Of a stretch of 27,093 nt of DNA, positions 8,191 through 22,761 are shown piece after piece (the stretch's first letter is position 1; each line of letters opens with the position of its first letter). The notes beneath the pieces are model-generated. The model was not told the DNA's origin, did no database searches, and saw only the letters and a list, made by a program, of their open reading frames with translations. Location of the stretch: IMG/VR virus record IMGVR_UViG_3300032160_001545, positions 1 through 27,093 of that record; one strand, given 5' to 3'. Position numbers and translations under genes: made by a program. Source of the DNA: a virus.

Positions 8191-8286
8191 AAGCAGTGGC
8201 AGCCGACGCCACCGTGAGCACGGCTGCCGATGTTGTGGGCACCGACTTGTTAACAATTTTGTGACCTGAAAAGGGGGTGAAAGAAA

Positions 8287-8337
8287 ATGGTCAAAGAAAA
8301 GAGAGTTACAACGCGCTATACGTCGCGTTTCGACTGA
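8287..8337 (+). other. 16-codon leader ORF in frame with the candidate capsid gene
   Basis: ATG 8287 is preceded by AAGGGGGTGAAAG, the best ribosome site in this stretch. It opens a 16-codon basic peptide (MVKEKRVTTRYTSRFD) ending at TGA 8335-8337. The same frame continues without another stop through eight codons (CREIAERE) into GTG 8362, the assigned start of the next gene. It may be a leader peptide for re-initiation, the N-terminus of a readthrough product, or an N-terminus split by a substitution (TGG to TGA). Apart from this and the hairpin, the 8164-8361 gap shows nothing I can support. Confidence 0.45.
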
Positions 8338-8361
8338 TGCCGCGAAATCGCAGAGAGAGAA

Positions 8362-9072
8362 GTGGGCCGGCCGAAACTCCACATGCTTCGCAAGAATCCC
8401 ATCGTCGCGGGGCAGCTCGAGTATTTGGTACAGCCCGTTTTCGATTTCTACGCCGTCGCGGTTGCAACGCCCGTCACCAAGCAGCAATTGTTCGCGCAGC
8501 CGATCGGCGCCTCATACACGCCGAGCGGCGGTGCTGCGTTCATCAAAACGCTGTACCACACGAACCTCGTGCAGCCCGGAATGCTGGACGCACCGAAAAA
8601 ACTGCTCGTGAAGGCGGTTGCGATTGTGCTTCGCTCGGACATTTCAGGGCAAGACCTTGCGTCCTTCATCGGACTCACCCTTGCTCAGCTAACGATCTCC
8701 GGAAAAGATTACTGGACTTCGTTAGTGTCGAAATGCCCGGCAGGCGCGGGCGCTTACGGCTTCTATCAGTCAACGCAGACGTTGGCTGCCGGCGGCACCG
8801 AAATGAACCTCGGCGCAAACGGCTGGCCTTCAGCGCAGAACGTCGCCACCATCACCGATCCAATGCCCCAAATTCCGGGGCTGGACGCGATGGAGCCGAT
8901 CCTCGGGCAGTTGGTGGAGCAAAATCAAAACTTTGCTGTCATCCTCGATCCGACGATCTCAGGCGCGGCCGCGTTTACTACGTTGGCTGCCGCTCCAGCG
9001 ACCCAATACGTGGGCACGGGCATCAACTGCCACGTGTACCTCGAGGGGGTGTTGGCTCGGGCAATTCTGTAG
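8362..9072 (+). CDS. Candidate major capsid protein, beta-rich, 236 aa
   Basis: The sequence is dominated by alternating hydrophobic strands separated by Gly/Pro/Asn loops (FDFYAVAVATPV, KLLVKAVAIVLRSD, LTLAQLTISGKDYW, NFAVILDPTISG). It closes with a strand ending CHVYLEGVLARAIL. It lacks signal peptide and membrane segments and sits at the head of four beta-rich genes in mid structural block. This fits a single jelly-roll-sized capsid protein; it is too short for a double jelly-roll. The assignment is by fold impression and context, not by a recognised motif. The N-terminus has the basic KNP motif (MLRKNPIVAG). GTG 8362 has a GAGAGA site close by; ATG 8383 is an alternative. Confidence 0.6.
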   Translation: MGRPKLHMLRKNPIVAGQLEYLVQPVFDFYAVAVATPVTKQQLFAQPIGASYTPSGGAAFIKTLYHTNLVQPGMLDAPKKLLVKAVAIVLRSDISGQDLASFIGLTLAQLTISGKDYWTSLVSKCPAGAGAYGFYQSTQTLAAGGTEMNLGANGWPSAQNVATITDPMPQIPGLDAMEPILGQLVEQNQNFAVILDPTISGAAAFTTLAAAPATQYVGTGINCHVYLEGVLARAIL

Positions 9073-9074
9073 AA

Positions 9075-9160
9075 CCAGGCACGCTCGCTGCTTTCAAAGA
9101 CCGAGCGGAGATGCGAGCGATCTTCGCTTTTCAAAAAGCCAGGCACGCCGTTTCAAACGG
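9075..9160. repeat. Direct repeats and palindrome in the gap before the 143-aa gene
   Basis: CCAGGCACGC occurs at 9075-9084 and again at 9139-9148. Each copy is followed within 10 bases by TTTCAAA. The second copy runs into the palindrome CCGTTTCAAACGG (9148-9160). The 130-base gap has no coding signal on either strand, so it is a plausible regulatory region or remnant of a duplication. The binding protein, if any, is unknown. Confidence 0.45.
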
Positions 9161-9173
9161 TCCACCTAGGCGC

Positions 9174-9202
9174 AGAAAAAAAGTTCCCAAGAGAGGGACA
9201 CC
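9174..9202 (+). promoter_or_regulatory. Conserved leader element with strong ribosome site, copy 2
   Basis: This is the second copy of the element at 6435-6462: an A-run, then CCCAAGAGAGGGACACC directly before ATG 9203. The GAGAGGGA core lies four bases from the start codon. The similarity extends well beyond a ribosome site, so both copies may derive from a common leader. Confidence 0.55.
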
Positions 9203-9634
9203 ATGGACCCGACATTAGATGATCAGTTTGAACGGCAATTCTTTTCGTACGTGCTCGATCGCGTGGTACCCGCGAACGCCGTGCAGGATCCGAACCAGTT
9301 GCAGATTCTTTCGGACGCCGATTTCGAATGGTGGTGGGTACTCGCCTCGCGGACCTCGAACCTGCTCAAAGTTCTCATGAAAGAGCAGGCCACGGGCCGC
9401 GACTTCATCGGCACCACGGCATCCGCGATCGCCGGCGCCGTCACCTTCAACGGAATTCAGATCGACCTGTGGGCCGGCACCGCGCAGGCGTCGGGTGCAT
9501 TCCCGCTCGCCGTGCCCTACATCATGCCGGCGACTCGTGTGTACTCGCTGCTTTTTTCGGACACGAGCGGCGCCCCGAACACCGTGGAAATTGTTTTCAG
9601 CGGCTTCAAGTTGTGGCCGCGCCCGAAAGGCTAG
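9203..9634 (+). CDS. Candidate minor capsid or vertex protein, beta-rich, 143 aa
   Basis: ATG 9203 is fixed by the leader element. The protein has an N-terminal strand region (FERQFFSYVLDRVVPANA) and an aromatic motif SDADFEWWWV. It ends in the pattern Y-x-L-L-F-S-D-T-S-G-A-x-N-T-V-E-I-V-F-S-G-F. I have seen such closing strands (SGA..N.V...F.G.K) in small structural proteins of uncharacterised phages. No helical membrane segment is present. With the 236-residue product next door it could form a large and small capsid pair like those of P23-77-type viruses. That is an inference from size and order only. Confidence 0.58.
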   Translation: MDPTLDDQFERQFFSYVLDRVVPANAVQDPNQLQILSDADFEWWWVLASRTSNLLKVLMKEQATGRDFIGTTASAIAGAVTFNGIQIDLWAGTAQASGAFPLAVPYIMPATRVYSLLFSDTSGAPNTVEIVFSGFKLWPRPKG

Positions 9635-9637
9635 GAC

Positions 9638-10234
9638 ATGGCAGGCGAACGCCAAACCGGCCGCGGGGCGCGTCCCTACTCGCTCCGCAACACCATCCAA
9701 AATCCGCTCGCGCGGATGCTGGACCCGTTTCGCTTGCAGGCCCAAGTGTATCGGCTCGGCGAGCGGCACCCACCCTCGGGCCATCTGGACGGGTTCGGGC
9801 CGACGTGGGAAGCGGTCAGCATGGTGCTCGCGCCACAGGGCACGCTGCAGGCTCGCGTGAATCTGCAACGCGAGTACACGCTCATTGGACTCACCGCAGC
9901 GACGACTTCGAACGCAAACGGAGGATTTCGCGCGCAGCTCTACGACGTGAAGAAGCAAGTGCGCCTCGCCGATCGCGGTGTGCAGTTAGCGCTCATCGCC
10001 GGCAACCTCGGGCCCGTCGGACCCATCGCTTCGTTCTTGCTGCGTGAACCGTACCCGTTCGACGAGCCCGACTCGCAAATTCTCGTGGTAGTGCAAAACC
10101 TCGAGACGGTGCAAAACAGTATTCAGCTTGCGCTCTATGGGGTTGCTCTGCCCTTCAATGCCGTGCACGCGGCCGGCGCCCACGAATTCCCCGGCGGCCC
10201 GGTTTCGAGCACGCGCGCACCAGGGGGTCAATGA
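9638..10234 (+). CDS. Candidate structural protein, beta-rich, 198 aa
   Basis: The gene starts three bases after the preceding TAG. A basic N-terminal arm (GARPYSLRNTIQNPLARML) with an Asn-Pro precedes a beta-rich body (TLQARVNLQREYTLIGLTAA, GGFRAQLYDVKKQVRLA). It ends with FLLREPYPFDEPDSQILVVV and NSIQLALYGVALPF. The R-E-P-Y/H-P-F and 'IQLALYG' strands recur in uncharacterised phage structural proteins I remember. The closing strand is analogous to that of the 143-residue neighbour, suggesting a shared fold. The C-terminus is Pro/Gly-rich. I infer a capsid, penton or spike-base protein. The next gene starts on the ATGA that holds its stop. Confidence 0.6.
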   Translation: MAGERQTGRGARPYSLRNTIQNPLARMLDPFRLQAQVYRLGERHPPSGHLDGFGPTWEAVSMVLAPQGTLQARVNLQREYTLIGLTAATTSNANGGFRAQLYDVKKQVRLADRGVQLALIAGNLGPVGPIASFLLREPYPFDEPDSQILVVVQNLETVQNSIQLALYGVALPFNAVHAAGAHEFPGGPVSSTRAPGGQ

Positions 10235-10845
10235 TGCCCAAACGCCGTGGAGCCGACGGACTCAGTTACCCCCACCGCTTTTCACGGACCATTAACCCGT
10301 ACAGTCCAACCTTGTCGGGCCTTGGGCAGGACACCGCAGTGGAATCCGATCAGGTGATCAATCCGAACGCCGATAGTCAGCCGCAAGCTGTGACGCGGCC
10401 GATTTGGCTGGATCCGCCGACCAACTGGGAGAACATCGACCAACTCGCCTATGCTCTCTTGCCGGCGATCGGCGCCCAGGTCACGATCCTCAGCTTTCAG
10501 GTGCCGATCGGCCGAAACGGTGTGATCAACAAAGTTGCAAACAATTTCGTGGGCGGCGGCTGGGTTGCCGGCACCGGAGATGTGATCTGGAAGATTCTCG
10601 TGGATGGCACGCCACCGCCAGGCGCGACCAGCTACAGCGCCATCACCGATTCACTCGGATCGCCGGCACTACCGACCAAGATCGCCGGCTTTCGTGTTTT
10701 CGAAAACCAACTTGTGACCGTGGTGGGCTTCAACAATCCCGCCGGCGCGAACGGCGGCGTGGTCGTCGCGGGCCAGCGTCTCGGCGCTCGGTTGCTCGGC
10801 TACCTGTACCCGCGCGATCTGGAAGATGGAAGCATATGGATTTAA
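10231..10845 (+). CDS. Candidate structural protein, beta-rich, 204 aa
   Basis: ATG 10231 overlaps the preceding TGA. The N-terminal 75 residues are basic and Pro-rich (RRGADGLSYPHRFSRTINPY). The rest alternates strands and loops (AQVTILSFQVPIGRNGVINK, FVGGGWVAGTGDVIWKILVD, IAGFRVFENQLVTVVGFNN, LGARLLGYLYPRDL). The pattern 'P.G..GVI...N.F.GGG...G.GD..W.I' is one I recall from uncharacterised virion proteins. A jelly-roll vertex or spike-base role is possible. No signal peptide or membrane segment is present. It is the last of the four beta-rich genes before the secreted group. Confidence 0.6.
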   Translation: MMPKRRGADGLSYPHRFSRTINPYSPTLSGLGQDTAVESDQVINPNADSQPQAVTRPIWLDPPTNWENIDQLAYALLPAIGAQVTILSFQVPIGRNGVINKVANNFVGGGWVAGTGDVIWKILVDGTPPPGATSYSAITDSLGSPALPTKIAGFRVFENQLVTVVGFNNPAGANGGVVVAGQRLGARLLGYLYPRDLEDGSIWI

Positions 10846-10850
10846 GGCTC

Positions 10851-12002
10851 ATGAAAAAAATTGCTCTACTTTTGCTCACACTTCTCGCGCTCGTCGGATG
10901 CGCTACGCGACCCGTGCGCGCGCAGTTCATCGGTTACACCGCGCCGCAGACCGAACAGCAAACCCTTGCGACGAGCACATTGTGCACTGGCAGCGCGCAA
11001 ACCTATGCCATTAACAACCTCGGTCAGACCCAGCATTGGTTAAGTGTCGCAAACGTCACCGGCGCCACCAAATTCCAGGCTGAGCTTGACGCCTTCGACG
11101 TGCAGGGCAACACCTACCGCATCTCGGACGTCATGGAAATCCCCGGCCTTGTTGCCACTCGGCAAGGCACGCTCTATGCGACCGGCTACTTTCCGAAGAT
11201 CCAGGCAACCATTACGTGCTCGCCCGGCACCGCGACCTTTACCGCTTCTTACGCGGGCGGCTGGGGAACCACGAACGGCGCCGCCGGATCGTTTCTCACC
11301 GCACAGATCGATAAGGTGAATTTTGCGCAGATCGCCGGTAACGCGCCGCAGACCGATACCTTTCAGACCCCATTTGGCAGCAGCGCCGGCGCGATCTTCT
11401 TCCAGTACTCCGGAAGTGTGGCCGGGGGCACGCTCGCAGTTGTCTGCAATACCAACGGCACCACGGGCAACTCGAATCTTGCGCTTTTCACGTTGGCCAA
11501 CGTCAGCCTTTTGCAAGTCTTCACCGTGCCCGATTACGGGTGCCCCTTTGTGACGCTCAACTACACCAACGGCGGCGCCGCGACCTCGATCACCTCGGAC
11601 TATGTTTTCGCGGTTCCAGGCTTGCGCAATCACGCCACGACGGACATGTGCAGTTCGGGCACCTTCCCGAAGAGCGGCACCGCCGTCTCTGCCGGCGCCG
11701 CGACCACGACCCAGATAATCGCCGCAGTCGCGCAATTCGCGATTTACGTGTGCGGCTACGAACTATCGCAGATCGCGACCGCGGGCACGGTGCAATGGGT
11801 CTATGGGACGGGCGCTAGTTGCGGCACCGGCACCACGAACCTCACCGGCCCCATGGGCGTCACCGCGTCTCAGCCGTTTGGCTACGGCACCGGCGGCAAC
11901 ACCGTTTTCAAGGTGCCCGTGGGAAACGCGCTTTGTCTGACCGCAACCGGCGCCGGCGGAACCGTGTCCGGCGTAGTGACCGCAATCCAGTTGACGCAGT
12001 GA
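10851..12002 (+). CDS. Secreted or lipid-anchored surface protein, 383 aa
   Basis: The N-terminus is a signal sequence (MKKIALLLLTLLALVGCAT) with a lipobox-like L-V-G-C, and an alternative signal peptidase I site at VRA-QF. ATG 10836 would add five residues. The mature part is Gly/Thr/Ala-rich with scattered Cys and many short strands. A final domain (IYVCGYELSQIATAGTVQWV, YGTGASCGTGTTNLTG, VFKVPVGNALCLTATG) resembles C-terminal beta domains of secreted or fibre-like proteins I remember from acidobacterial and phage sequences. I infer an exported receptor-binding or surface-decoration protein. It opens a run of exported products reaching to 17803. Confidence 0.68.
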   Translation: MKKIALLLLTLLALVGCATRPVRAQFIGYTAPQTEQQTLATSTLCTGSAQTYAINNLGQTQHWLSVANVTGATKFQAELDAFDVQGNTYRISDVMEIPGLVATRQGTLYATGYFPKIQATITCSPGTATFTASYAGGWGTTNGAAGSFLTAQIDKVNFAQIAGNAPQTDTFQTPFGSSAGAIFFQYSGSVAGGTLAVVCNTNGTTGNSNLALFTLANVSLLQVFTVPDYGCPFVTLNYTNGGAATSITSDYVFAVPGLRNHATTDMCSSGTFPKSGTAVSAGAATTTQIIAAVAQFAIYVCGYELSQIATAGTVQWVYGTGASCGTGTTNLTGPMGVTASQPFGYGTGGNTVFKVPVGNALCLTATGAGGTVSGVVTAIQLTQ

Positions 12003-12009
12003 ACGTGAA

Positions 12010-12228
12010 ATGTGGAAGGCGCTGACACTCTCGCTTTTATTCGTGGGCTGCAGCCAAAGGCGTACGCCGTTGCCCGCACCGCCGTTGCCCGCAGCGCCGT
12101 TGCCTGCACCGCCCACTATTTCCATGTGCGCCTCGGGCACGGTAATCGTGAATCCCAACGGGCCGAACTGCTGCATGCAATTCGACTTGAGCGGCAAACT
12201 TGGCTGCACGCCGATAAAGGGGAACTGA
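12010..12228 (+). CDS. Small Pro-rich lipoprotein, 72 aa
   Basis: The first 14 residues (MWKALTLSLLFVGC) form a short lipoprotein signal with lipobox F-V-G-C. A Pro/Ala repeat (PLPAPPLPAAPLPAPP) follows, then a Cys-containing tail (ISMCASG, GPNCCMQFDLSG, LGCTP). It lies between two other lipoprotein-like genes, and the next start (TGATG) overlaps its stop. In tailed phages such small Pro-rich lipoproteins can be outer-membrane spanins (o-spanin, Rz1). That is a reasonable guess here, with the 81-residue membrane and coiled-coil protein at 12973 as a possible inner-membrane partner. No pairing evidence beyond layout is available. Confidence 0.6.
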   Translation: MWKALTLSLLFVGCSQRRTPLPAPPLPAAPLPAPPTISMCASGTVIVNPNGPNCCMQFDLSGKLGCTPIKGN

Positions 12229-12761
12229 TGAAAACGCGCCACTCGCTTCTGATCTTCGTCCTCATCTTCGCGCTACTCCTGACCGCCTGCAGCACGTGGC
12301 CCACGATAATCGCCACGGCGGAATCGCTCGCCTCGATCACTACGATCTTTGAGCCCGGCATCGGTGCACTTTCCGCGCTCGCCGTGAGCCTCTTGGAGTC
12401 GGCCGAAAGCGCCGCGACCGTGTACAACAAAAGCAAAAGCACCTCGACCGAGCAAGCGTACATCGCCGCAATTCAGGACATAGAGACACGGTTGCCGGAT
12501 GAGCTGCAGAAATTGAGAAACGCCGGCGTGAGCATTCCCGCGGCTGATCTCGCGAAGGCGCAGGCTACCGTCAATATCATTCTTGATTGGGTAGAAGCCG
12601 AAGCCGCGCAGGTGCCGGCAACCGCGGGAATGGTGGCCGCGAAGCGCCAGGCTCGAGCAGTCGGACCAGCACCCAAGCGGATGACGCGCGCCCAGATCAA
12701 AGCGCGATGGGATAAAGAAGTGTGCGGCGGGGATGCCGCGTGCGCCGCAAAGGTGAAGTAG
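12228..12761 (+). CDS. Helical lipoprotein, 177 aa
   Basis: The signal MKTRHSLLIFVLIFALLLTAC-S has a clear L-T-A-C lipobox. The mature protein is predominantly helical and Ala-rich (SLLESAESAATVYNKSK, EQAYIAAIQDIETRLPDEL) and ends with a basic, Cys-containing tail (KARWDKEVCGGDAACAAKVK). It is likely tethered to a membrane facing the periplasm. Its setting among small membrane proteins and a transglycosylase suggests lysis or cell-envelope passage, but no family is recognised. The start is fixed by TGATG overlap with the preceding stop. Confidence 0.66.
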   Translation: MKTRHSLLIFVLIFALLLTACSTWPTIIATAESLASITTIFEPGIGALSALAVSLLESAESAATVYNKSKSTSTEQAYIAAIQDIETRLPDELQKLRNAGVSIPAADLAKAQATVNIILDWVEAEAAQVPATAGMVAAKRQARAVGPAPKRMTRAQIKARWDKEVCGGDAACAAKVK

Positions 12762-12778
12762 AAAAAGAGGGGGATCGC

Positions 12779-12976
12779 ATGAACACGATAAAGAGTTTTT
12801 TCGTGAACTGGAAAACCAGTTTGCTCGGAATTGTGGCAGGGGCTTTCACTGCCTTGCAGGGCGGCGCGTCGGTGAAGAGTGTTGCGACGGGCGCCGCGAT
12901 CGCTTTGCTCGGGCTCGTCTCGAAAGACGGCACCACGCACAGCACCCAAACTGAGGTAACGGCCGCAAGCAAGTGA
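12779..12976 (+). CDS. Small membrane protein, possible holin, 65 aa
   Basis: ATG 12779 has a GAGGGGG ribosome site. The product has a short basic N-terminus (MNTIKSFFVNWKTS), one hydrophobic segment (LLGIVAGAFTALQGG) and a second moderately hydrophobic one (SVATGAAIALLGLVSK), then a polar tail. Size and two-segment layout fit class II-type holins, the pore-formers that release lysis enzymes, and the transglycosylase gene is 500 bases downstream. Holins are defined by behaviour more than sequence, so this stays a guess. Confidence 0.55.
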   Translation: MNTIKSFFVNWKTSLLGIVAGAFTALQGGASVKSVATGAAIALLGLVSKDGTTHSTQTEVTAASK

Positions 12977-13218
12977 CCGAAAATGTGTGGCTCGGGCTCG
13001 TGGGCGTGCTACTCACCGTGATCGCCGCACTTGGTGGACTTGCCTATCGCGACGTGCAGCGGCAGATCGCCACGCTCACCGAGCGCCAGGAGATCGCGGA
13101 GAAACGGCGTAAAAGGATTGTCATGGCCGTGCTTGCGTTGAATACGACGGTGCACCCGGACACGAAGCACACCATCGACATTTTGCGGCCGCTGATCGAA
13201 AACGGAGACGCCGACTAA
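12973..13218 (+). CDS. 81-aa N-terminal membrane anchor plus coiled coil
   Basis: GTG 12973 overlaps the previous TGA. One N-terminal transmembrane helix (WLGLVGVLLTVIAALGGLAY) is followed by a charged helix likely to form a coiled coil (RDVQRQIATLTERQEIAEKR). A short C-terminal part ends DILRPLIENGD. This is the layout of XhlA-like or i-spanin-like lysis accessories. It lies between the putative holin and the transglycosylase. The product is annotated on layout only; a virion membrane protein is an alternative. Confidence 0.6.
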   Translation: MTENVWLGLVGVLLTVIAALGGLAYRDVQRQIATLTERQEIAEKRRKRIVMAVLALNTTVHPDTKHTIDILRPLIENGDAD

Positions 13219-13455
13219 ATGGCATACGCGCTCGAGGTTCTGATCATCGACGAAGGCGACGGCACGATTAAAGTGGGCCACACCTTTTACGGAGAAACCG
13301 AGCGCGAGGTGCGGACCTACTTCCGCGAGCATCAGCAATCGTGCGAGTACTTCGCCGCGGCCGTGAAGGCCGGCCGGGCACTCGAGGAGCTCGAAGAGAT
13401 CGACGACGACGAACTCCCCGACGCGGCAGACTTCGAAGAGGAGGAGGCAGGATGA
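13219..13455 (+). CDS. 78-aa acidic cytoplasmic protein
   Basis: The gene directly abuts the preceding TAA and ends in the ATGA of the transglycosylase gene. The N-terminal half looks like a small alpha/beta unit (LEVLIIDEGDGTIKVGHTFY, ETEREVRTYFREHQQSCEYF). The C-terminal third is extremely acidic (LEELEEIDDDELPDAADFEE). I recall similar 'HTFYGETE.EVRTYFREH' proteins from phage genomes without assigned function. The acidic tail could mimic DNA or dock a basic partner such as the 51-residue protein; that is speculation. Confidence 0.65.
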   Translation: MAYALEVLIIDEGDGTIKVGHTFYGETEREVRTYFREHQQSCEYFAAAVKAGRALEELEEIDDDELPDAADFEEEEAG

Positions 13456-13982
13456 CAGCCGACGTTCTCGCACTCCTGCAGTCCGCGGCCGCACGGTACG
13501 GCCTCGATCCGGCCCTCGTGATCGCTCAGGCCAACGCGGAGTCGGGCGGCCGGCAGTACGACTCGAGTGGCAACGTGCTCACCTCATCCGCCGGCGCTCT
13601 CGGCGTTATGCAATTGATGCCGGCGACGGCAGCCGGGCTCGGCGTGGACCCGACCGACACCGCGCAGAACATCGACGGCGGCGTGCGCTATCTCGCGCAA
13701 CTGATCAAGGAATTCGGGGGCAACACCACGCTAGCGCTCGCTGCCTATAACTGGGGGCCGGGCAACGTGTCGAAAAACGGGCTCAACAATTGGCCCACCG
13801 AGACGATGAACTACGTGAGCTCGATCATGGCCGCGATCGGCAACGTGTTCTCGCCGAGTGACGCGCCGGCGGATCCAAACGCACCGCCAGACACAACGGG
13901 CGGAACCGGCTCGAGCAATCTGCTGATCTGGGCGGCCGTCGCTGCACTTGCGCTCTGGGGTGCAAGCGAAATCTGGGGTTGA
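13452..13982 (+). CDS. Membrane-anchored lytic transglycosylase (SLT/goose-lysozyme-like fold), 176 aa
   Basis: The catalytic domain fills residues 1-120. It has A-N-A-E30-S-G-G with the family's catalytic Glu, then S-S-A-G-A-L-G-V-M-Q-L-M-P-A-T (about 45-59) and A-A-Y-N-W-G-P-G-N-V, all hallmark SLT-type motifs. The enzyme cleaves the MurNAc-GlcNAc bond of peptidoglycan. Unlike typical soluble endolysins it ends in a Pro/Gly/Ser linker and a hydrophobic anchor (about 156-176, NLLIWAAVAALALWGASEIWG). That suggests a membrane- or virion-membrane-bound enzyme for local wall opening during entry, as P7 does in PRD1. A role in host lysis is also possible. The start is fixed by the ATGA overlap. 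Confidence 0.9.
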   Translation: MTADVLALLQSAAARYGLDPALVIAQANAESGGRQYDSSGNVLTSSAGALGVMQLMPATAAGLGVDPTDTAQNIDGGVRYLAQLIKEFGGNTTLALAAYNWGPGNVSKNGLNNWPTETMNYVSSIMAAIGNVFSPSDAPADPNAPPDTTGGTGSSNLLIWAAVAALALWGASEIWG

Positions 13983-14006
13983 CAATGCCGCGCAAATTTT
14001 TACACT
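13979..14006 (+). promoter_or_regulatory. Possible sigma-70-type promoter at the fibre gene
   Basis: TTGACA (13979-13984), a perfect -35 box, is followed after 16 bases by TACACT (14001-14006), four of six matches to TATAAT. The region is unusually A/T-rich for this window. It overlaps the first codons assigned to the fibre gene, so it could serve a shorter transcript or be fortuitous. Confidence 0.3.
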
Positions 14007-17000
14007 GCCGTCAAATTTTTACACTGCCGTCAAATTTTTACAGGCAAAGTCGGCAGCTCGGTACCCTTCTCGCTTTCCTCTTCTGTGCCGCATCCGCGTG
14101 GGCACAGTTTACCCAGGTGTCGGGCACGATCACCGACCCGAACGGCCTACCATACGCAAATGGAACGATCAGTGCCGCGCTCGTTTCGAGTGCCAGTCCC
14201 ACTCTAAACGGCTTGCCGTACACCCCACCAACGCAACCCTCTGGACTCAATAGCTCGGGCTCGTTCGTGATGAACCTTGCCGCGAATGCTTCACTACTCC
14301 CAGCCGCAAGCACGTGGAGTTTTACCGTCAATTGCGGTACGGGTTGCGTCTTGCCGGCCGGGGGGCTCGGCCCCGTATCCTTCACCATCACCGGCATTAC
14401 GATCGCGGGCGCCTCGCAAAACATCTCCGCACAGTTGCAGGCCGCGGCGCTCCCCATCTCGATTCCAGCGAGCGGCAGCTTTCCGACAGCCGCAAATGCA
14501 ACATTCGGCGCCGGCGTGGTCACTCTCACCACGTTGACCGGCAATTTTCCAGCAGCCTATCTAGTCGGCGCAACCATCTCCGTCACCGGATGCACCACCG
14601 CCGGGGATAACATCAGCGCAGCCATTGCGACCGGCGGCGCCGGCACGAATACACTCACTTATGCCGACGCCGGCGGCGGCGGCCCGGCTACCGGCTGTAT
14701 CGCGCATATTGTTTCGGGCACGGCCGCGCCACCGTTCAACACCGTAGGTGCTGGCACCAATCCTAACGCCCTGCTGGTTTCGGGGAGTCTCGCACCAACC
14801 GGCGGCGGAACCATCACCACGAACAATGTGGGAGTTGCCAGTGCCACAGTCCTCGGCAGCAACGGCAGCAGCGCACCCATCGCCGCCGGCTTGACCAACA
14901 CAAATATCTGGATCGGCAGCATCGGGGGCTTGCCCGTTGCGAATGCACTCTCGGGAGATGCTTCGCTCGCGAATAATGGCGCCGTCACGAATAAGGGCAT
15001 GAATGGCACACTTTTCTCGAGTCTCGCCACTGGCCCGCTGTGCAACACCACGGCAACCGGCGTGCCCTTCATCTGTGCGGCCGGCAACTTCCCAACCCTC
15101 AATCAAAACACCAGCGGATCCGCGGCCAGCTTCACCGGCTCGCTCACCGGCGATGTTACCGGCACACAGGGTGCAACGACTGTCACCGCAATTCACGGCA
15201 CGATCCTCACCAGCCTTGCGACTGGCCCACTGTGCAACACCACATCAACCGGCGTGCCCTTCATCTGCGGCGTCGGCAATTATCCGATCTTCAATCAAAA
15301 CACCACGGGCACAGCCGCATCGATCACGGGCGCCCTCACGCTCGCCAACACGCCACTGACCACGAATAACGACTTACTGGCGGAGCTCGGGGGAGTGCTC
15401 GCTCGAGTGCCAGGCGGCACGAACGGAACATGGCTCGGAATCTCCGGCGGGGTGCTCGCCTACAGCACGCCCAGCGTCACGCTCTCGGGAATGTTGCAAG
15501 GGCAGGCAGCCGTTGGCGGCGCTCTCACCACGAATCTCGCGCCGAGCAGCGCGCGCATTTTTGCCTCTTCGTTTCGCACCGGCGCCGGCCTCACCTCGCC
15601 GTGCTCGACGCTGCAGCAAGCCGTCGGCAATCTTGGATCCTTCGGCAATATCATCGACGCCGGCGATCTCGCCAACACCTCCGGCCCGAACGTCGGCACC
15701 TTCGCCGGGCTCAGCTACACCAACACCGCATGTGGACTTGACTCCAACATCTTCGGCGGGTTCTCGGGCGGCCAAGCGTCGACTTCGGTGATGAACGGCG
15801 GGGAAATCGACCTCGGGCCGATGAACCTGATCGTCTCGCTCGTGCCGTCCTTCTATGGTGTCTGTTGTCAAACGGTCACCCTCAACCAAACCCCACCGAT
15901 CGGGGTGATGATGATCCCGAACGGTGTGATCGGACTGAAGGGCCGCGGCCGCGGCTACGCCGGCACCCGCAACACTACCATCACCGTCGCCGCTTCTGCT
16001 GCGAATGGATCCGTCGCACCCCAGGCTCGCTCGTGGACGATCAGCGGAATCACCGCCAGTGCCATTGCCGTCCAAAATCAGAAATACGGCGCCGTGCACC
16101 GCGAGTACATGACGATTACCGCGACGGCGAACAGTTTCGGGATTAACTCAATCAGCGGCAACGGCACTCTTGCTACCGTCACCATGAACGGCCTGATCTC
16201 CGGCGAACTCTCGGCCGGGCAGACTGTCACCGTGTCGGGTAACGTGACTTTTAACGGCACGTACAGCGTGTGCGGCGCCGGCGTGGGCGGCAATTGCACC
16301 TCGCCACCCGTCACCGTGGCCGGCGTCACTACCTTTACGATCTCGACCGCGACCGTGGGCACCCAGGCCGGCGGCTCGCTTGCCGTGGGGCCGAACTTTG
16401 CCCCCGGCGAGTATATACAGATCGAAGGCGCGACCGGCGCCGCCAACGTGAACGATGGACGATGGAGAGTGTGTGCGACGCAGGTGAACGTCAACGACGG
16501 TGTGGGCGGGGATAACAACTGCCCGGTTGCATTGCCAGGCGCGTCCGGCAGTCCGAACACATTGGCCGTGGTGGGCATCAGCGCGGACAGTTCCCCCAAA
16601 CTGCAGGGTGCGACTTCCGTCACGTGCGCCTCGGGGTGTGGCACGATCGTCGGCGTGCTTCCCGTGGTCGAGCTGGGAGATCCAACCAAGGGCAATTCTC
16701 AGTTCGGCGAGCTTGTCGATCACATCCTTGTGGACTGCAATAATGTGCCCTCGTGCGTGAACTATCGCGATCTGACCGGCAACGAGCAAAGTGGAATCTG
16801 GTTCTCGGGCGGCACCGGCAGCCAGGAAGCATGTTTCATCGCCTCGACCAACGTCGGACAAAACTCTTATGGCTGGTTTTCGCTCGAGTGCTTGCCGGAC
16901 GTCGGCCAAACCTGTCTGCCTGGTTCGACGGGCTACATTATGTCCGACAACGGCGCCCGGATCATCAACGGTTGGACGTACGTCGCGCCGAACTCCTGCT

Positions 17001-17803
17001 GGCCGATCACCGGCTTCTATAACGACATTAACGGCACTTCCTTAATCGGCACCGGCCACTCGGAGCACACCATCTTCGGATTTTTGGCGGGACAGAACGC
17101 ACCCAGCTCGAACTGGGTCGCGACGGGCGTCGGAGGAATGCCGGCGAATCCGGGCAATGTCACCGACGGACCTTACCAGGGGAACCCACCGCCAGGCGCC
17201 GCGGCCCAAGCCGTTGCCGGCGCCTTCCCACAACAGATCAACGGGGCCAACTCCGCGTTTACCTCGGACTATGTTTTCATCGCCCAGAAGAAATCGAGCA
17301 ACGTGGCAGCCAGCTTCTTTGAGATCGCGGACGACTATTTCGGCTATACCTCGACCGATCAGCAGATCATGGTCAACGCCGTCGACACTTTCGGCAGCGG
17401 CACGGAGCCAACCCACTACACAACCAGTGCTTCGGTGCAGTCGACCCTGCAGGCGATCGGGACCGCACAGAACGGCAGTGCTGCCGGCACCGCGGCGAAT
17501 CCCTCTGTGGTGACGTTCTCGGCGACAAATCCGAATCTGCTGGGCTCCACGTCGGGCGCTTTTGCCTGCTCGGCAAGCGCTTCCACCGGCACCTGTGTGG
17601 TCAACACCACGGCAGTCACAACAAACAGCCGCATCTTCATTCAACCCACGGCAGCCTCGCCGGGCTTGACCTGCAACGCTACGCCGGACACGGGTCTCGT
17701 ACTTCAGCGGCTCGCTTCGCAGATCGCCGGCACGAGCTTCACTATCAATCTCGGCACCTTTGCAGGGAACGCCGAGTGTTTCAACTTCTGGATTATCGAC
17801 TAG
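13979..17803 (+). CDS. Large secreted fibre or adhesin-like protein, 1274 aa
   Basis: TTG 13979 (TTGA overlap) or ATG 13985 opens the frame. A 19-bp tandem repeat encodes the first residues before the signal peptide LGTLLAFLFCAASAWA-Q. Next come a beta domain (VSGTITDPNGLPYANGT) like those I remember from acidobacterial secreted proteins, a Thr/Ala/Gly-rich region and a 64-residue-period duplication (about residues 341-454). A long Gly/Asn-rich beta region with many paired Cys follows, suggesting a beta-helix. The C-terminal domain has the pattern 'TTNSRIFIQPTAA...SFTINLG', seen at the ends of some phage and bacterial fibre proteins. A receptor-binding or adhesin role is inferred. Export through Sec is unusual for a phage fibre. 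The stop overlaps the opposing gene by four bases. Confidence 0.78.
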   Translation: MTMPRKFLHCRQIFTLPSNFYRQSRQLGTLLAFLFCAASAWAQFTQVSGTITDPNGLPYANGTISAALVSSASPTLNGLPYTPPTQPSGLNSSGSFVMNLAANASLLPAASTWSFTVNCGTGCVLPAGGLGPVSFTITGITIAGASQNISAQLQAAALPISIPASGSFPTAANATFGAGVVTLTTLTGNFPAAYLVGATISVTGCTTAGDNISAAIATGGAGTNTLTYADAGGGGPATGCIAHIVSGTAAPPFNTVGAGTNPNALLVSGSLAPTGGGTITTNNVGVASATVLGSNGSSAPIAAGLTNTNIWIGSIGGLPVANALSGDASLANNGAVTNKGMNGTLFSSLATGPLCNTTATGVPFICAAGNFPTLNQNTSGSAASFTGSLTGDVTGTQGATTVTAIHGTILTSLATGPLCNTTSTGVPFICGVGNYPIFNQNTTGTAASITGALTLANTPLTTNNDLLAELGGVLARVPGGTNGTWLGISGGVLAYSTPSVTLSGMLQGQAAVGGALTTNLAPSSARIFASSFRTGAGLTSPCSTLQQAVGNLGSFGNIIDAGDLANTSGPNVGTFAGLSYTNTACGLDSNIFGGFSGGQASTSVMNGGEIDLGPMNLIVSLVPSFYGVCCQTVTLNQTPPIGVMMIPNGVIGLKGRGRGYAGTRNTTITVAASAANGSVAPQARSWTISGITASAIAVQNQKYGAVHREYMTITATANSFGINSISGNGTLATVTMNGLISGELSAGQTVTVSGNVTFNGTYSVCGAGVGGNCTSPPVTVAGVTTFTISTATVGTQAGGSLAVGPNFAPGEYIQIEGATGAANVNDGRWRVCATQVNVNDGVGGDNNCPVALPGASGSPNTLAVVGISADSSPKLQGATSVTCASGCGTIVGVLPVVELGDPTKGNSQFGELVDHILVDCNNVPSCVNYRDLTGNEQSGIWFSGGTGSQEACFIASTNVGQNSYGWFSLECLPDVGQTCLPGSTGYIMSDNGARIINGWTYVAPNSCWPITGFYNDINGTSLIGTGHSEHTIFGFLAGQNAPSSNWVATGVGGMPANPGNVTDGPYQGNPPPGAAAQAVAGAFPQQINGANSAFTSDYVFIAQKKSSNVAASFFEIADDYFGYTSTDQQIMVNAVDTFGSGTEPTHYTTSASVQSTLQAIGTAQNGSAAGTAANPSVVTFSATNPNLLGSTSGAFACSASASTGTCVVNTTAVTTNSRIFIQPTAASPGLTCNATPDTGLVLQRLASQIAGTSFTINLGTFAGNAECFNFWIID
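13993..14042. repeat. 19-bp tandem repeat within the 5' end of the fibre gene
   Basis: CAAATTTTTACACTGCCGT occurs at 13993-14011 and 14012-14030, followed by the first 12 bases again at 14031-14042. Part of a degenerate copy (ATGCCGCG) precedes it. The unit is not a multiple of three, so gain or loss of one copy would shift the frame ahead of the signal peptide. Confidence 0.9.
14999..15340 (+). repeat. Internal duplication in the fibre gene, period 192 bp
   Basis: Two 50-residue units at 14999-15148 and 15191-15340 share S-L-A-T-G-P-L-C-N-T-T-x-T-G-V-P-F-I-C and G-N-x-P-x-x-N-Q-N-T-x-G. The DNA is also similar, so this is a fairly recent or conserved 64-residue repeat. Each unit has two Cys. 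Confidence 0.85.
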
Positions 17804-17997: not shown

Positions 17998-19047
17998 TTA
18001 CGCTCCTTGGTGCTCTTCATCAAACTCCCTCACGATGGCTCGAGCTGATTCCACCGGCTCCTCGCCTCGAGCGATTGCTTCTGCATGGGCCATCCCCATC
18101 CATGCCGGCTGCACGTACACCCGATACAGTTCCTTTTCCCAACACACAATGAACTGCCCCAAGCCGAGCTCGGGGATCTCGTGCTTTTTCGGCTTGCGAA
18201 TGTGGCCGGGGATATAGGCCAGGGTCCGATCAATTTCCCCCGGGTCGCGCTGCACACCGAACAGCCACACCTTGCACTGCCGCAACAGCACACCGCTCAC
18301 GCTCGCGAGATCCTGAGAGTCGATCCAGAGAAAGTTTTTCAGGGCAGCCCCTTCGCGGATCATCTCTTCGGCTGCGAACCGCACCGGCGAGCCCCGGCGC
18401 CGCGGCGCAAACTTCCACGCCTCGGGAATGACCGCGATCGTGTGCACTTCGTTGTGGTGGATCCACTCGATCGCTGAGCGCACGATCAGCCCTTGGAGCG
18501 CAAACTCGTAAGGCAGAAGATCCATCACGTTCAGCCCGTCCTCGAGTTCGAGCGTCGGCGTGTGCGGCAAGGCTTCGATACCGGGCACCACTTCGCGAAG
18601 GTACTCGGTGAGCACGGTGTACACGTTGCGGGTGAAGCCGCGGACCTTACTGCTGAGCGCCGTCTCGGCATTCTGTAACACGTCCGCCAGGGTTTTCGGT
18701 GCTTTCCATGTTCCCTCGGGTCCGCTGTAGGTTTGGCACAGGTTAATAATTTGCGCCAGTTCGATCTTCTGTTTTTCCCCGGACGTCGCTTCGATCAGAG
18801 ATTTGATAAAAGGCCAGTCCGTCCGATCCTTGAAGTATGCCCGGATCGGTTGCGCCACACGGAAAGACCCTTCGCCGCGCTTGGTGACGAAGGCCACGGC
18901 TCGGCACTTCGACCGGCACACTACACCCTCGAGCAGTGTCGTTTTGCCGCTCACGTTGGTCTGTCCGGTGACGGCCATGTGGCCGATCGGGATTGTGATC
19001 GCTCTCCCGGTACGCAACTCAAATCCGAGATGCACGCCGGCGCTCAC
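17998..19047 (-). CDS. HerA/FtsK-superfamily ATPase, candidate genome-packaging ATPase, 349 aa
   Basis: GTG at 19047 (GTGA overlap) gives 349 residues. Motif A is TGQTNVSGKTT (28-37), one residue longer than the usual GxTGSGKS of HerA proteins. The motif B position reads I-A-V-I-P-E-A (204-210), with the normal D-E pair replaced by P-E. A Gln at 245 in FLWIDSQDLASVSGVLLRQC fits the sensor Gln of HerA/FtsK ATPases, followed by WLFGVQRDPGEIDRTLAYIP. Such ATPases move double-stranded DNA, and tailless membrane viruses use one to fill the capsid. There is no terminase-type nuclease domain and no relaxase or pilus gene nearby, so packaging is preferred to conjugation. Confidence 0.8.
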   Translation of the reverse strand: MSAGVHLGFELRTGRAITIPIGHMAVTGQTNVSGKTTLLEGVVCRSKCRAVAFVTKRGEGSFRVAQPIRAYFKDRTDWPFIKSLIEATSGEKQKIELAQIINLCQTYSGPEGTWKAPKTLADVLQNAETALSSKVRGFTRNVYTVLTEYLREVVPGIEALPHTPTLELEDGLNVMDLLPYEFALQGLIVRSAIEWIHHNEVHTIAVIPEAWKFAPRRRGSPVRFAAEEMIREGAALKNFLWIDSQDLASVSGVLLRQCKVWLFGVQRDPGEIDRTLAYIPGHIRKPKKHEIPELGLGQFIVCWEKELYRVYVQPAWMGMAHAEAIARGEEPVESARAIVREFDEEHQGA

Positions 19048-19154
19048 AGCTTGACCCCAAGCAGCCGCAGCAAGACGAACAGGACGATAGTCCAAGCGAG
19101 AAACGGGTGCAGATTCGCCATCTGATCGAACGCGGTTATAAAGTGCTCAAGCAT
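19044..19154 (-). CDS. 36-aa single-pass membrane peptide
   Basis: The peptide MLEHFITAFDQMANLHPFLA leads into the hydrophobic helix WTIVLFVLLRLLGVKL. Its stop is shared with the ATPase start (GTGA), which supports the reading. The start is uncertain: in-frame GTG codons farther upstream could add residues, and no strong ribosome site precedes the ATG. It may anchor or regulate the ATPase, or be a virion membrane peptide. The bases between it and the recombinase stop (19155-19233) hold nothing else I can support. Confidence 0.5.
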   Translation of the reverse strand: MLEHFITAFDQMANLHPFLAWTIVLFVLLRLLGVKL

Positions 19155-19233: not shown

Positions 19234-19817
19234 TTAGGCACCTTTTGCGGCACGCTGCAGGGCGCGCCGACAGCTCTCAATGGAAACCTTCATCTCGCTC
19301 GCGATCGTGTCCCAGGGCACGCCCTGTGCGCGGCGCTTGCGGATATAATCGGCATCCACAAAAACGCGTGGCCGGCCGAGCCTGCTTCCTTTGCCCGCGC
19401 GTTGGCGATTCCCGACCGAACTCGCTCACGGATGCACTCGCGTTCGAACTCGGCAAACGCTCCGATGATCTGAAACATCAGGCGGCCGGCCGCGGTAGTG
19501 GTGTCCACCTGATCTTTGACGCTCACAAATTCCACGCCCAACTCGTGAAACTCTTCCAGGGCATTCACGAGATGCCGCAGGGACCGGGCAAACCGATCGA
19601 ACTTCCAGACCATAACCACGTCGAACTTTCGCCGGCGGACGTCCGCCATCATGCGATCGAGCACCGGGCGCTTCTCTTTGGAACCAGAAACGCCCGGCTC
19701 GGGAAAGATGGTGTGCTCCCATCCGCGATGCTCGGCTTCGGTTGCCATGTCGCGGATCTGCATCCCCTCATCTTGCTCGCCCGTCGATACCCGTGCGTAG
19801 AGTGCGGCTCGCTTCAT
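19234..19817 (-). pseudogene. Serine recombinase (resolvase/invertase family), frameshifted
   Basis: The catalytic domain is intact: Y-A-R-V-S11-T-G-E-Q with the nucleophilic Ser, then V-V-M-V-W-K-F-D-R-F-A-R-S, and F-Q-I-I-G-A-F-A-E-F-E-R leading into the long arm. The frame ends at 19290 after a nonsense tail. The expected C-terminus (GSRLGRPRVFVDADYI, then WDTIASEMKVSIESCRRAL, a Hin/resolvase-type HTH) continues in the -1 frame to TAA 19234-19236. One A added to the AAA at 19390-19392 restores about 194 residues. Small serine recombinases resolve multimers or invert segments. ATG 19817 overlaps the preceding TGA. A truncated protein would lack its DNA-binding domain. Confidence 0.85.
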
Positions 19818-20020
19818 CAGGCTTTCCAGTTCACCGCACGCCAGATCCCCATCAGGAAGAAAAACAGCACGCCCACTCGGGTTATTTTTTCTGTCGGCTT
19901 GCCAAAACACCAGGACCGCGGAAAGAATCGGCTCGGGATTCCAAGGCTGTAGAGGATCCTCCCGAGCCAAGTGCGCTCTACGCTGAACTGATAAGGTTCG
20001 CTCTGTGCTGGTTGCTTCAT
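19817..20020 (-). CDS. 67-aa basic membrane protein
   Basis: ATG 20020 follows a GGAGGG site that lies inside the end of the propeller gene, and the stop overlaps the recombinase start (TGATG). A basic, aromatic N-terminal half (SVERTWLGRILYSLGIPSRF) precedes a hydrophobic helix (ITRVGVLFFFLMGIWRAV). No signal peptidase site is evident. The function is unknown. The tight coupling on both sides makes it likely to be real. Confidence 0.6.
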   Translation of the reverse strand: MKQPAQSEPYQFSVERTWLGRILYSLGIPSRFFPRSWCFGKPTEKITRVGVLFFFLMGIWRAVNWKA

Positions 20021-20024: not shown

Positions 20025-21674
20025 TTATAGTTGCCCTCCTTGGCAAGGTGTCACGGGATCGCCACCAGGGCCACGTTGCTGCGAGTCGTTATTCCACGTG
20101 TAGATGTGCCCCGGAATTCCGCCAGCCCCGTACACCCTTATATGCGGCGCACCGACGGTAAGTGCCACTCCCCAGCCTAAGCCGTCTGAGGTCACTATAC
20201 CCTCAACATCGCCATTCACGTACCGCCCCGGCATCTTCGTCGGCTTCGGGCTGATGCCTTTGTAAACGACGTGCACGTTGCCACCGTAAAGATCCAACAG
20301 GGGAAAAAATGTAGAGGTGCACCATTGCTGCATCCCCACTCCCGTCCACTCGTAGTTTCCAATGAGCGCCCCTACCCCAAACAGCCCGTACCCTGACGGC
20401 TCGACGTTGAAGTTATTCTTAATGTAGTACTTTTGATTGACCTCGGTTTCGTGCCGGTTGCAGTCGCAGTCATTCGAGCTCGTGAAGACAATCCCTCCAA
20501 CAGCTAACACCACTTCAAGTTTGAAGTTTGTAGAGCTACAACTGGGACCCGGCGCGAAGCCATCACAGGTCGTACCGGCGGAAAATGGGGTTGCGTCCAA
20601 AACGGCATCGGCAGTTGTCGACAGGTAGCATTCCGGATCCCCTAACGGTTCCCACCCAGAGGGACAAACATACTTCGCGTTCGCGTGGTTTAGGTCGTAG
20701 AAGTTGACCGTCACGTTAGGATCACCACTGCCACAAGCCGATCCGCAGGTGCCGCTGATATGAATCGCCCCTTGGGCAAGGACCGTGTTGAGGTGATAGA
20801 GATAAGTGTTAGATGCCACCGCGAGGCTGAGCCCTGCCCCTCCCACCGTGAGGTACGTCGGCGTGAAGTACGTAGTGGACACCTCCGAGAATGTGCTTCC
20901 GTTGTCGTGGGAGATCCAAACGTTTCCGCTAGTGTCGAGCATCATGACGCTATCGTTGCCGATCGCGATAGCCCCGGCGTTGGTACTGGGAGTAAAGGGA
21001 ACGGAGCTGCTCACGTTCTGCCATCCAAGGGTTGTCTCCCACACCCAGGTTGCGTTCGCTCCGTTGACTCCCATCACGTTTCCGTCCGAGCTGACCGCGA
21101 TGTTGTCGAATGCTCCGTCTATCTGTTGCCAGCTAGTTCCGCCTGCTACCCATTCGTAAATGTTCCCGTTTCCGTTGGAAGTACCCAAGCACCAGAGGTT
21201 CCCTGCGGCGTCGATCCCGCCTTGAATACAAGCGCCGTTGGCCATTTGCTTTAAGGTTCCATCGCTCTGCAGGGTGAAGACGTTGTGAGTTGCGGTGCTT
21301 CCGAGGATCATCACCTCGGTCGCGCTTCCGGCGTAGATGGTCACGGTGTGACCATTACTGCCGGAAAGTTCCAAGTTGGTTTTCCGATTCCACGCCTGCG
21401 TCGACCAGTTCCACAGCCACACTTCATGACTGCTGTCTACGTGATAAACGGTGCCGTCGGCCGCGGCTGCAATGTTGACGGCGTTCCCGGTGAAATTCAC
21501 CCAGCAATTATCAGAGACACAGTTCCAGCCTGAGTACGGGCTGTAGGTGCTGTTCAGCACGTCGACGCCAGTTAGAGAGTAGGTCGCCGTGTACTGGGCC
21601 AGTCCCGGCAGGGACAGCAGAAGGACCGCATACACTCCGAAAACCAAGCGTGCTATTTTGTGGTAGCTGATCAT
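20025..21674 (-). CDS. Secreted beta-propeller-like protein, 549 aa
   Basis: ATG 21674 has a GGAGGGG site. The signal peptide is IARLVFGVYAVLLLSLPGLA-Q. Residues of about 50-310 form repeated blades with the tectonin-like pattern 'I-A-x-x-x-D-G-x-V/L-W ... W-x-x-I' (AAAADGTVYHVDSSHEVWLW, AAGNLWCLGT, SSDGNVMGVNGANATWVWET, TSGNVWISHDNGSTF). Such propellers bind ligands or glycans outside the cell. The C-terminal half is Cys-rich (CGSACGSG, CPSGWEPLGDPECY, NDCDCNRH) and has no family I know. By eye its GC content is lower than its neighbours, near 50% in sampled lines, which suggests a separately acquired cargo gene. It is the only large exported product in the leftward block. Confidence 0.78.
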   Translation of the reverse strand: MISYHKIARLVFGVYAVLLLSLPGLAQYTATYSLTGVDVLNSTYSPYSGWNCVSDNCWVNFTGNAVNIAAAADGTVYHVDSSHEVWLWNWSTQAWNRKTNLELSGSNGHTVTIYAGSATEVMILGSTATHNVFTLQSDGTLKQMANGACIQGGIDAAGNLWCLGTSNGNGNIYEWVAGGTSWQQIDGAFDNIAVSSDGNVMGVNGANATWVWETTLGWQNVSSSVPFTPSTNAGAIAIGNDSVMMLDTSGNVWISHDNGSTFSEVSTTYFTPTYLTVGGAGLSLAVASNTYLYHLNTVLAQGAIHISGTCGSACGSGDPNVTVNFYDLNHANAKYVCPSGWEPLGDPECYLSTTADAVLDATPFSAGTTCDGFAPGPSCSSTNFKLEVVLAVGGIVFTSSNDCDCNRHETEVNQKYYIKNNFNVEPSGYGLFGVGALIGNYEWTGVGMQQWCTSTFFPLLDLYGGNVHVVYKGISPKPTKMPGRYVNGDVEGIVTSDGLGWGVALTVGAPHIRVYGAGGIPGHIYTWNNDSQQRGPGGDPVTPCQGGQL

Positions 21675-21724
21675 CAAGTGGCCCCTCCGTTGGGCCGGTT
21701 GTGGTGATTGGTGAGGGCCGGGAC

Positions 21725-22660
21725 TTAGCGCGTCAACGCCAGTTCCGGCCCGCTGGTTAAAATCGTGGGCCACTCCCGCACCCGTAGACTCTCGGGCCAC
21801 TCGGAAGGATCGCCGCCCTTGCGATCCTTGATTGGCAGCGCTGGACAGTGCAGCAGTGTTTCAGAACCCAATATCGGGGTAATCCAACGTTTCGGGCAGC
21901 TCCCCACCTGTTTCATGAAGAACGGCACGCCGGCAGCCTTGCACTGCTCTCGCAGGGATTCGGCCCAGGCCAGGTTGAATGGTCGCGCCTGTGAGCCGGA
22001 TTCGCCGCCGCAGATGATCCAGTTGAGTTTGGTGCACCACAGAGAAATCCCGGCCGCGGCTTCCAAGTTTACCGCCTCGAGCATTGGCTCGACGCTGGCC
22101 CCACGCATCGCCGCCGGTGTCTGAAGCAGCAACGGCATCTCTACGTCCGCATCTTTCTGTCGGCCGAAGGATGCCATCTCGATCACGTTGGGCAAGGGCC
22201 ACGGGCCATCGACGGCACCGAGCACGTTGCGCTTTGTTGTCGGGTGTCTCAGAAACAGCTTTCGCTGATCACTCCGCTTGGTGAGCACAATGTAAAAGTG
22301 CTGAGGAGTCGCCGCCATCACCGAATAGATCTGATCGACCCATGCCCACGGCACCTCTTGGCTGTACAGGTCCGTCATGGAGCACGGGAACACTTTCCGC
22401 GGTTGCTTCCAGTGCAGGGGTTGCTGCAAAGTCTTTTCATCCAAAAAGTATTCGACCAGGGGAAGTTTGTCCGCAGCGTAGGGCACGCCGTTGCCGTGGC
22501 GGCCCCGGTTGGTGCCGGCTACGATGTTTTGGTGCTCGGCGTAGCAGTTGCGGCAGGCATCATTCACCTTGACGCAGTGCCAGCCCACTTTGCCGTCAGA
22601 GCGGCGCCGGGCTCGGATCGGGTTCCATGTGGCATCGGTCCACTCGATCTTTGTGCTCAC
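21725..22660 (-). CDS. DUF5131 / phage Gp37-Gp68 family protein, 311 aa
   Basis: GTG 22660 overlaps the preceding TGA. The N-terminus has the family signature I-E-W-T-D-A-T-W-N-P, with a C29..C36-x-x-C39-Y-A cysteine cluster. Later come V-F-P-C-S-M-T-D-L-Y, H-F-Y-I-V-L-T-K-R, G-A-S-V-E-P-M-L, W-I-I-C-G-G-E-S-G, and V-P-F-F-M-K-Q-V-G. These match the radical-SAM-like DUF5131 proteins common in phages and mobile elements, whose substrate is unknown. Length is normal for the family. It lies downstream of a DNA methyltransferase and an HNH nuclease, consistent with nucleic-acid modification, but the context does not prove it. Confidence 0.85.
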   Translation of the reverse strand: MSTKIEWTDATWNPIRARRRSDGKVGWHCVKVNDACRNCYAEHQNIVAGTNRGRHGNGVPYAADKLPLVEYFLDEKTLQQPLHWKQPRKVFPCSMTDLYSQEVPWAWVDQIYSVMAATPQHFYIVLTKRSDQRKLFLRHPTTKRNVLGAVDGPWPLPNVIEMASFGRQKDADVEMPLLLQTPAAMRGASVEPMLEAVNLEAAAGISLWCTKLNWIICGGESGSQARPFNLAWAESLREQCKAAGVPFFMKQVGSCPKRWITPILGSETLLHCPALPIKDRKGGDPSEWPESLRVREWPTILTSGPELALTR

Positions 22661-22761
22661 GAAATCCTCATTCCGAGCCAACCGCGCCGGTTCCAACCGT
22701 AGTGATTAAGCCAATATTTGATGTGGTCAAATTGATGTCTGGAATTGTTTTCCAAGTTCAT
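22657..22761 (-). CDS. 34-aa peptide between coupled genes
   Basis: ATG at 22761 overlaps the preceding TGA (TGATG) and the stop overlaps the GTG of the DUF5131 gene (GTGA). The peptide is polar and aromatic (NSRHQFDHIKYWLNHYGWNR) with a basic end. The double overlap is the main support. It could be a short real protein or simply a translated linker that couples its neighbours. Confidence 0.5.
   Translation of the reverse strand: MNLENNSRHQFDHIKYWLNHYGWNRRGWLGMRIS

What the first reader, a model, noticed from the sequence alone, without database searches (positions are those of the whole stretch)
20025..21674. Lower-GC secreted beta-propeller inside the early block
A 549-residue exported propeller with a novel Cys-rich C-terminal half interrupts a run of small intracellular genes. 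Its base composition differs by eye from both sides. It could be a recently acquired cargo gene that changes the host surface or binds extracellular glycans.
Basis: partly seen in the sequence, partly recalled or inferred. Interest (0 to 1): 0.5.

Follow-up and report, generated by a model that had tools for sequence, protein, structure and literature searches.

The report
Virus-borne secreted tectonin lectin-like cargo
A little-known environmental virus, probably of bacteria, carries a swappable gene for an exported protein with a sugar-binding-type propeller and a cysteine-rich tail, which may let it coat or change the surface of the cell it infects.

Summary
A 549-residue gene lies at 20025-21674 on the minus strand, with a ribosome-binding site and an N-terminal signal peptide. 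Its propeller half matches Pfam Tectonin (E 1.7e-11); no family was found for the Cys-rich C-terminal half. Its GC (0.562) is second lowest of 24 window genes tested, and its codon usage is the most atypical (z -6.1).

The window is an uncultured-virus record. Of 35 other records sharing its ATPase or a second conserved protein, one (G014) encodes a tectonin protein. That protein too has a signal peptide and lies upstream of the serine recombinase and ATPase genes, though its immediate neighbours differ. In G014 the gene is part of a clean 1.8-kb insertion against a relative about 90% identical on its left. The two proteins share N-terminus and propeller; their C-terminal halves show no significant similarity. 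Slot contents vary among the relatives inspected.

Best reading: an exchangeable accessory (moron-like) gene for an exported, probably glycan-binding propeller that may mask or alter surface glycans. Ligand, fold, host and lysogeny were not shown; AlphaFold failed. No report of a phage or prophage tectonin turned up in the papers searched.

The parts
20025..21674 (-). Secreted tectonin-domain protein, 549 aa, the finding
21684..21688 (-). Shine-Dalgarno-like GGAGG before the ATG
   Evidence: Read from sequence
21597..21674 (-). N-terminal signal peptide, residues 1-26 (by inspection and hydropathy)
20775..21530 (-). Propeller region, about residues 49-300 (right-hand limit judged by eye); Pfam Tectonin best stretch 49-210, with a second stretch below the cut-off at 20787-20975
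20028..20774 (-). Cys-rich C-terminal half, residues 301-549, no recognised family
19817..20020 (-). 67-aa ORF with one hydrophobic stretch (by eye), four bases after the tectonin stop and overlapping the recombinase start by one base
   Evidence: Read; translated
19290..19817 (-). Serine recombinase (Pfam Resolvase E 1.7e-46); compared with a relative, its C-terminal part lies in another frame
17998..19095 (-). P-loop-type ATPase, conserved landmark gene of the lineage; no Pfam match, only insignificant PDB matches to DUF87 (E 0.048) and HerA (E 0.57)
21725..22696 (-). DUF5131 protein, upstream neighbour

Best explanation
The gene is an exchangeable accessory (moron-like) gene of an uncultured, probably bacterial, virus. 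It sits in a variable region just upstream of the lineage's serine recombinase and ATPase genes. Shown here: reading frame, family match, atypical codons, no match in most relatives, and a second diverged tectonin gene in the corresponding region of another member. Inferred: during infection or carriage the protein is exported through the Sec pathway, folds with disulfides outside the cytoplasm, and uses its tectonin propeller to bind surface or extracellular glycans (tectonins of other organisms bind O-methylated sugars and LPS). The most likely benefit is to mask or cross-link the host's surface polysaccharide, so that competing viruses adsorb less well or the host's surface behaviour changes. 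The variable Cys-rich C-terminal half would anchor the protein or carry the specific activity.
For: Tectonin match above the curated cut-off for both proteins (44.4 and 46.6 bits, cut-off 30) and to PDB 5fsb. Signal peptides in both by a crude scan (sequences). Corresponding region in window and G014, upstream of recombinase and ATPase. PF19193 in 2 of 36 lineage records, window included, against 0 of 50 virus records picked for DUF5131 (that call had no positive control of its own). G014 compared with G001: flanking homology of 89.7% over 650 bp stops at L112:6698 and resumes at L112:8523 (74% over 262 bp), leaving 1824 bp in G014 where G001 has 23 bp (alignment). Codon usage of the tectonin gene is the most atypical of 24 genes in the window and of 9 genes in L112 (z -6.1 and -5.7). 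N-terminus and propeller of the two proteins are homologous (0 of 1000 shuffles reach either score). Papers: Tectonin2 binds 2-O-Me-fucose/3-O-Me-mannose and agglutinates certain E. coli (PMC6272156, passages); tectonins bind O-methylated glycans (PMC5238581, passages); a human tectonin protein binds LPS (PMC2707011, title in a search listing).
Against: No ligand, fold or localisation was shown; the AlphaFold model is useless (mean pLDDT 31.8). Tectonin2 did not inhibit the E. coli that it agglutinates (PMC6272156), so surface binding need not have a strong effect. The gene is rare in the lineage (2 of 36), so its benefit may be small or host-specific. No cellular relative or provirus was found (these scans reach mainly close relatives), so host, lysogeny and donor are unknown. 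GC alone does not single the gene out. The clean insertion is in G014; no close empty relative of the window is available. The immediate neighbours differ between the two carriers. Atypical codons could partly reflect selection on an exported protein of unusual make-up.
Confidence: 0.55

Rival explanations
1. The protein is a virion or release-associated lectin: an exported surface protein that decorates particles or helps them stick to glycans outside the cell, rather than a host-modifying protein.
For: Lectin-type domain and export signal. The virus already has a long spike-like gene with a weak, sub-cut-off K1-lyase C-terminal match (13979-17803).
Against: It lies on the opposite strand from the conserved, structural-looking block, among DNA-modification and recombinase genes, and no tectonin was found in 34 of the 35 other records.
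Confidence: 0.15
2. The protein is a secreted effector (chimerolectin): the propeller aims it at a glycan on competing cells or grazers and the variable Cys-rich C-terminal half acts on the target.
For: Propeller conserved but C-terminal halves not detectably homologous between the two proteins (C-terminal score reached by 152 of 1000 shuffles, propeller by 0 of 1000). Tectonin2 of a fungus is nematotoxic (PMC6272156, passages).
Against: No toxin domain is recognised in Pfam, NCBIfam, PHROGs or PADLOC for either protein. No immunity gene was looked for beyond the family scans of neighbours.
Confidence: 0.15
3. A host gene picked up by accident, with no function for the virus.
For: Rare in the lineage and atypical in codons.
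Against: Intact long frame with a ribosome-binding site in a tight gene row; a diverged tectonin gene sits in the corresponding region of another member, which chance capture does not predict.
Confidence: 0.15

Closest known systems
Tectonin domain family (Pfam PF19193); Laccaria bicolor Tectonin 2 (PDB 5fsb/5fsc)
   Same: Sequence match over the propeller repeats, above Pfam's cut-off
   Different: Tectonin 2 has no cysteine (PMC5238581, passage) and its chain is 227 aa. This protein has a signal peptide, 14 cysteines and an extra half of about 250 aa, and is encoded by a virus.
Phage morons / lysogenic-conversion surface genes (class recalled from general knowledge, no call)
   Same: Self-contained gene of atypical composition, present or absent among relatives, with a product for the cell surface or outside
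   Different: No tectonin-type moron appeared in the searches made; lysogeny of this virus is not shown.

Membership tests
Tectonin domain proteins (PF19193) | Profile score above Pfam's curated cut-off | tested here: met
   44.4 bits (window) and 46.6 bits (L112), cut-off 30
Tectonin domain proteins (PF19193) | Closed beta-propeller fold | tested here: inconclusive
   AlphaFold model with a two-row alignment has mean pLDDT 31.8; the hand-cut repeat alignment is weak, 28% mean column identity
Tectonin domain proteins (PF19193) | Binding of (O-methylated) glycans | not testable with these tools
   Needs protein and a glycan array
Phage moron / accessory cargo gene | Present or absent among close relatives at one site | tested here: met
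   Shown for the second copy: G014 filled, G001 empty, left flank 89.7% identical. 2 of 36 records carry the domain. For the window itself no close empty relative was available, so its own site was not tested.
Phage moron / accessory cargo gene | Composition unlike neighbours | tested here: met
   Codon z -6.1, most atypical of 24 genes; GC only second lowest
Phage moron / accessory cargo gene | Own promoter and terminator, expressed in the lysogen | not tested
   No promoter scan was run; no provirus found
Secreted protein (Sec, signal peptidase I) | N-terminal signal peptide | tested here: met
   Crude hydropathy and cleavage-motif scan, which also lists doubtful hits; no dedicated predictor was available
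Integron-type cassette array | attC-like recombination sites flanking each cassette | tested here: inconclusive
   A 33-bp sequence recurs at the slot edge in six relatives but not in the window (up to 7 mismatches); its palindromy is weak (116 of 5000 random 33-mers score as high)

The most novel reading that the evidence does not exclude
A lineage of uncultured viruses without a recognised hallmark gene carries a recombinase-linked cassette slot into which exported chimerolectins are swapped: a constant tectonin propeller for aiming and an exchangeable Cys-rich tail. In a subgroup the slot edge is a conserved 33-bp sequence at which different genes are joined.
Probability: 0.15. Interest if true: 0.75.

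Novelty: new variant of a known kind. Interest (0 to 1): 0.5.

Why it matters
If right, some environmental viruses distribute exported lectins the way some phages distribute toxins or O-antigen modifiers, and the region beside the recombinase is where to look for more host-surface cargo. It also gives a concrete protein pair, with a shared propeller and an unshared tail, for testing how a virus-encoded lectin affects adsorption of other viruses.

Tried and rejected
Structure prediction of the tectonin protein (two-row alignment A3) and of the 236-aa conserved protein (eight rows) both gave mean pLDDT near 32; no fold search was run on them. Searches with the window protein in viral contigs, genome contigs, GenBank phages and plasmids found no relative. 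The L112 protein found only its own record in viral contigs and nothing in phages or plasmids. A local phmmer search of 24,228 open frames from the session's loci gave, besides the two proteins themselves, one weak match of the L112 protein to a frame in L019 (E 2.9e-4). It covers 52 residues of the C-terminal half, the frame is Ser/Pro-rich with no Pfam match, and the window protein does not match it; I take it as chance. The host could not be named: no cellular genome matched the 236-aa protein and no tRNA is present. Homology of the C-terminal halves was not supported. The 33-bp joint as a recombinase crossover site was considered; its palindromy is only weakly unusual, so I do not claim it.

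Rows dropped: of 80 DUF5131 loci (itself capped at the best 80 of 577), 50 went into the tectonin control because a call takes at most 50; 30 were left out, and kinship of those 50 with the lineage was not tested. The codon test used 24 genes chosen by hand from the window and 9 from L112; other frames, such as 10404-12002, were left out, and small overlaps between chosen genes remain. One search printed only ORFs passing a GC-by-codon-position filter. The signal-peptide scan is crude.

Full report
What is there. The stretch 20025-21674 codes on the minus strand for one intact protein of 549 residues. It has a GGAGG site nine bases before its ATG and an N-terminal signal peptide by inspection (hydrophobic core, then LPGLA-Q). 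Pfam Tectonin matches residues 49-210, whole-protein E 1.7e-11, above the curated cut-off, with a second, weaker stretch further on. The best solved relative is Tectonin 2, PDB 5fsb (E 3.7e-6; profile of both session proteins E 2.1e-5). The C-terminal half holds 10 of the 14 cysteines. The whole protein has no other Pfam match, and none in NCBIfam, PHROGs or PADLOC.

Neighbourhood. On the minus strand the order is DUF5131 (21725-22696), tectonin, a 67-aa ORF with one hydrophobic stretch starting four bases after the tectonin stop, a serine recombinase whose ATG overlaps that ORF's stop by one base, a 78-aa ORF, then the ATPase gene. The recombinase's C-terminal part is found in another frame when compared with a relative's protein; this may be a real break or a sequencing error.

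Composition. GC is 0.562, second lowest of 24 genes. Synonymous codon usage corrected for amino acids is the most atypical of the 24 (z -6.1). The 22928 methyltransferase-like gene and the 24137 HNH gene are next (-3.7, -3.0). In L112 the tectonin gene is again the most atypical, of 9 genes (-5.7).

Relatives. The window is an uncultured-virus record of 27,093 bases; its completeness is not given and it may be a fragment. Its ATPase finds 34 loci in viral contigs and a conserved 236-aa protein 15. I call the latter capsid-like only from its conservation and place; it has no family or fold match. It is not found in cellular genomes, and neither protein is found in 50,697 GenBank phage records. 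In 36 records (window, the 34 ATPase loci, and one more from the 236-aa scan) Tectonin rings in 2: the window and G014. 25 of the 36 are 30 kb or longer and all 25 are negative; the other 11, including the window and G014, are shorter. BLAST with the window protein finds only itself in these 36. In 50 virus records picked for DUF5131 Tectonin rings in none.

The second copy. G014 (locus L112) encodes a 492-aa protein with a signal peptide and a Tectonin match at E 3.6e-12. It lies between DUF5131/HNH genes and the serine recombinase and ATPase genes. The fit with the window is regional, not gene by gene: in L112 several small genes stand between DUF5131 and the tectonin gene, and a 92-aa ORF between tectonin and recombinase. 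Pairwise the two proteins are 22% identical over the best BLAST segment (E 7e-5). By shuffling, the N-terminus and the propeller are homologous (0 of 1000 each) while the C-terminal halves are not detectably so (152 of 1000). A small ORF follows the tectonin gene in both (67 aa in the window, 36 aa in L112); whether these are related is unknown.

Gain and loss. G001 (L111) is a close relative of G014. Their DNA is 89.7% identical over 650 bp up to L111:7632 / L112:6698, and homology resumes at L111:7656 / L112:8523 (74% over 262 bp). G014 therefore has 1824 bp, including the tectonin gene, where G001 has 23 bp (alignment). L113 and L157 also lack this stretch. The slots inspected hold varied small genes, some with hydrophobic stretches; L113 and L114 are alike.

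A side feature of the slot. Its left edge in six relatives (L110, L111, L112, L113, L114, L157) is a 33-bp sequence, seven copies in all, nearly invariant, at the 3' end of three reading frames that look different by eye. It occurs in none of 1.34 Mb of control loci at up to 7 mismatches. L112 has it twice, before and at the end of a 54-aa ORF (read), with the tectonin gene following. The window lacks it. It looks like a recombination joint; that the recombinase uses it is not shown, and common descent within this subgroup may explain part of its conservation.

Mechanism. Export and foreign origin rest on sequence evidence; glycan binding rests on the family. Papers seen in passages: PMC6272156 (Tectonin2 binds O-methylated fucose and mannose, agglutinates certain E. 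coli without inhibiting growth) and PMC5238581 (O-methyl requirement). PMC2707011 was seen only in a search listing. I infer that the protein coats or alters the surface of the infected cell, most usefully by masking receptors from competing viruses; this last step is untested. In the held open-access library, 'tectonin' with 'phage' gave six papers, none about a phage tectonin by title or start of abstract; with 'prophage' it gave none. A wider search on prophage, lectin and superinfection exclusion listed 19 papers, none with tectonin in the title.

Limits. No structure, no host, no lysogeny, no close empty allele for the window itself. The lineage is defined here by its ATPase, and its more distant members (40-47% identity) may differ in much else.

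Noticed in passing
window 1-13455 and 17998-19095; loci L002-L008, L089-L148: A lineage of uncultured viruses with a conserved 236-aa protein and a P-loop-type ATPase. In the plus-strand, structural-looking block of window and G004 the proteins tested have no PHROG match better than E 0.03. On G004's minus strand one protein matches a PHROG of unknown function (E 2.4e-19) and an HNH protein matches many HNH PHROGs, one of them named terminase small subunit (E 3.2e-7). Neither landmark protein is found in GenBank phages.
   Followed up: partly
L112:6666-6698 and 6827-6859; L111:7600-7632; L113:5575-5607; L114:7454-7486; L110:753-785; L157:4572-4604: Nearly invariant 33-bp sequence at the 3' end of different genes, marking the left edge of the variable slot upstream of the recombinase.
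   Followed up: partly
window 19243-19413: C-terminal part of the serine recombinase lies in another frame than its catalytic part.
   Followed up: no
window 13979-17803: 1274-aa spike-like protein with a weak, sub-cut-off match to a K1 lyase C-terminal domain (E 3.2e-5).
   Followed up: no
window 19817-20020; L112:8381-8491: Small ORFs with a hydrophobic stretch directly after each tectonin gene.
   Followed up: no
L095:7985-9001: A relative (G004) encodes a transglutaminase-like protein (E 7.3e-15) near the start of its structural-looking block.
   Followed up: no
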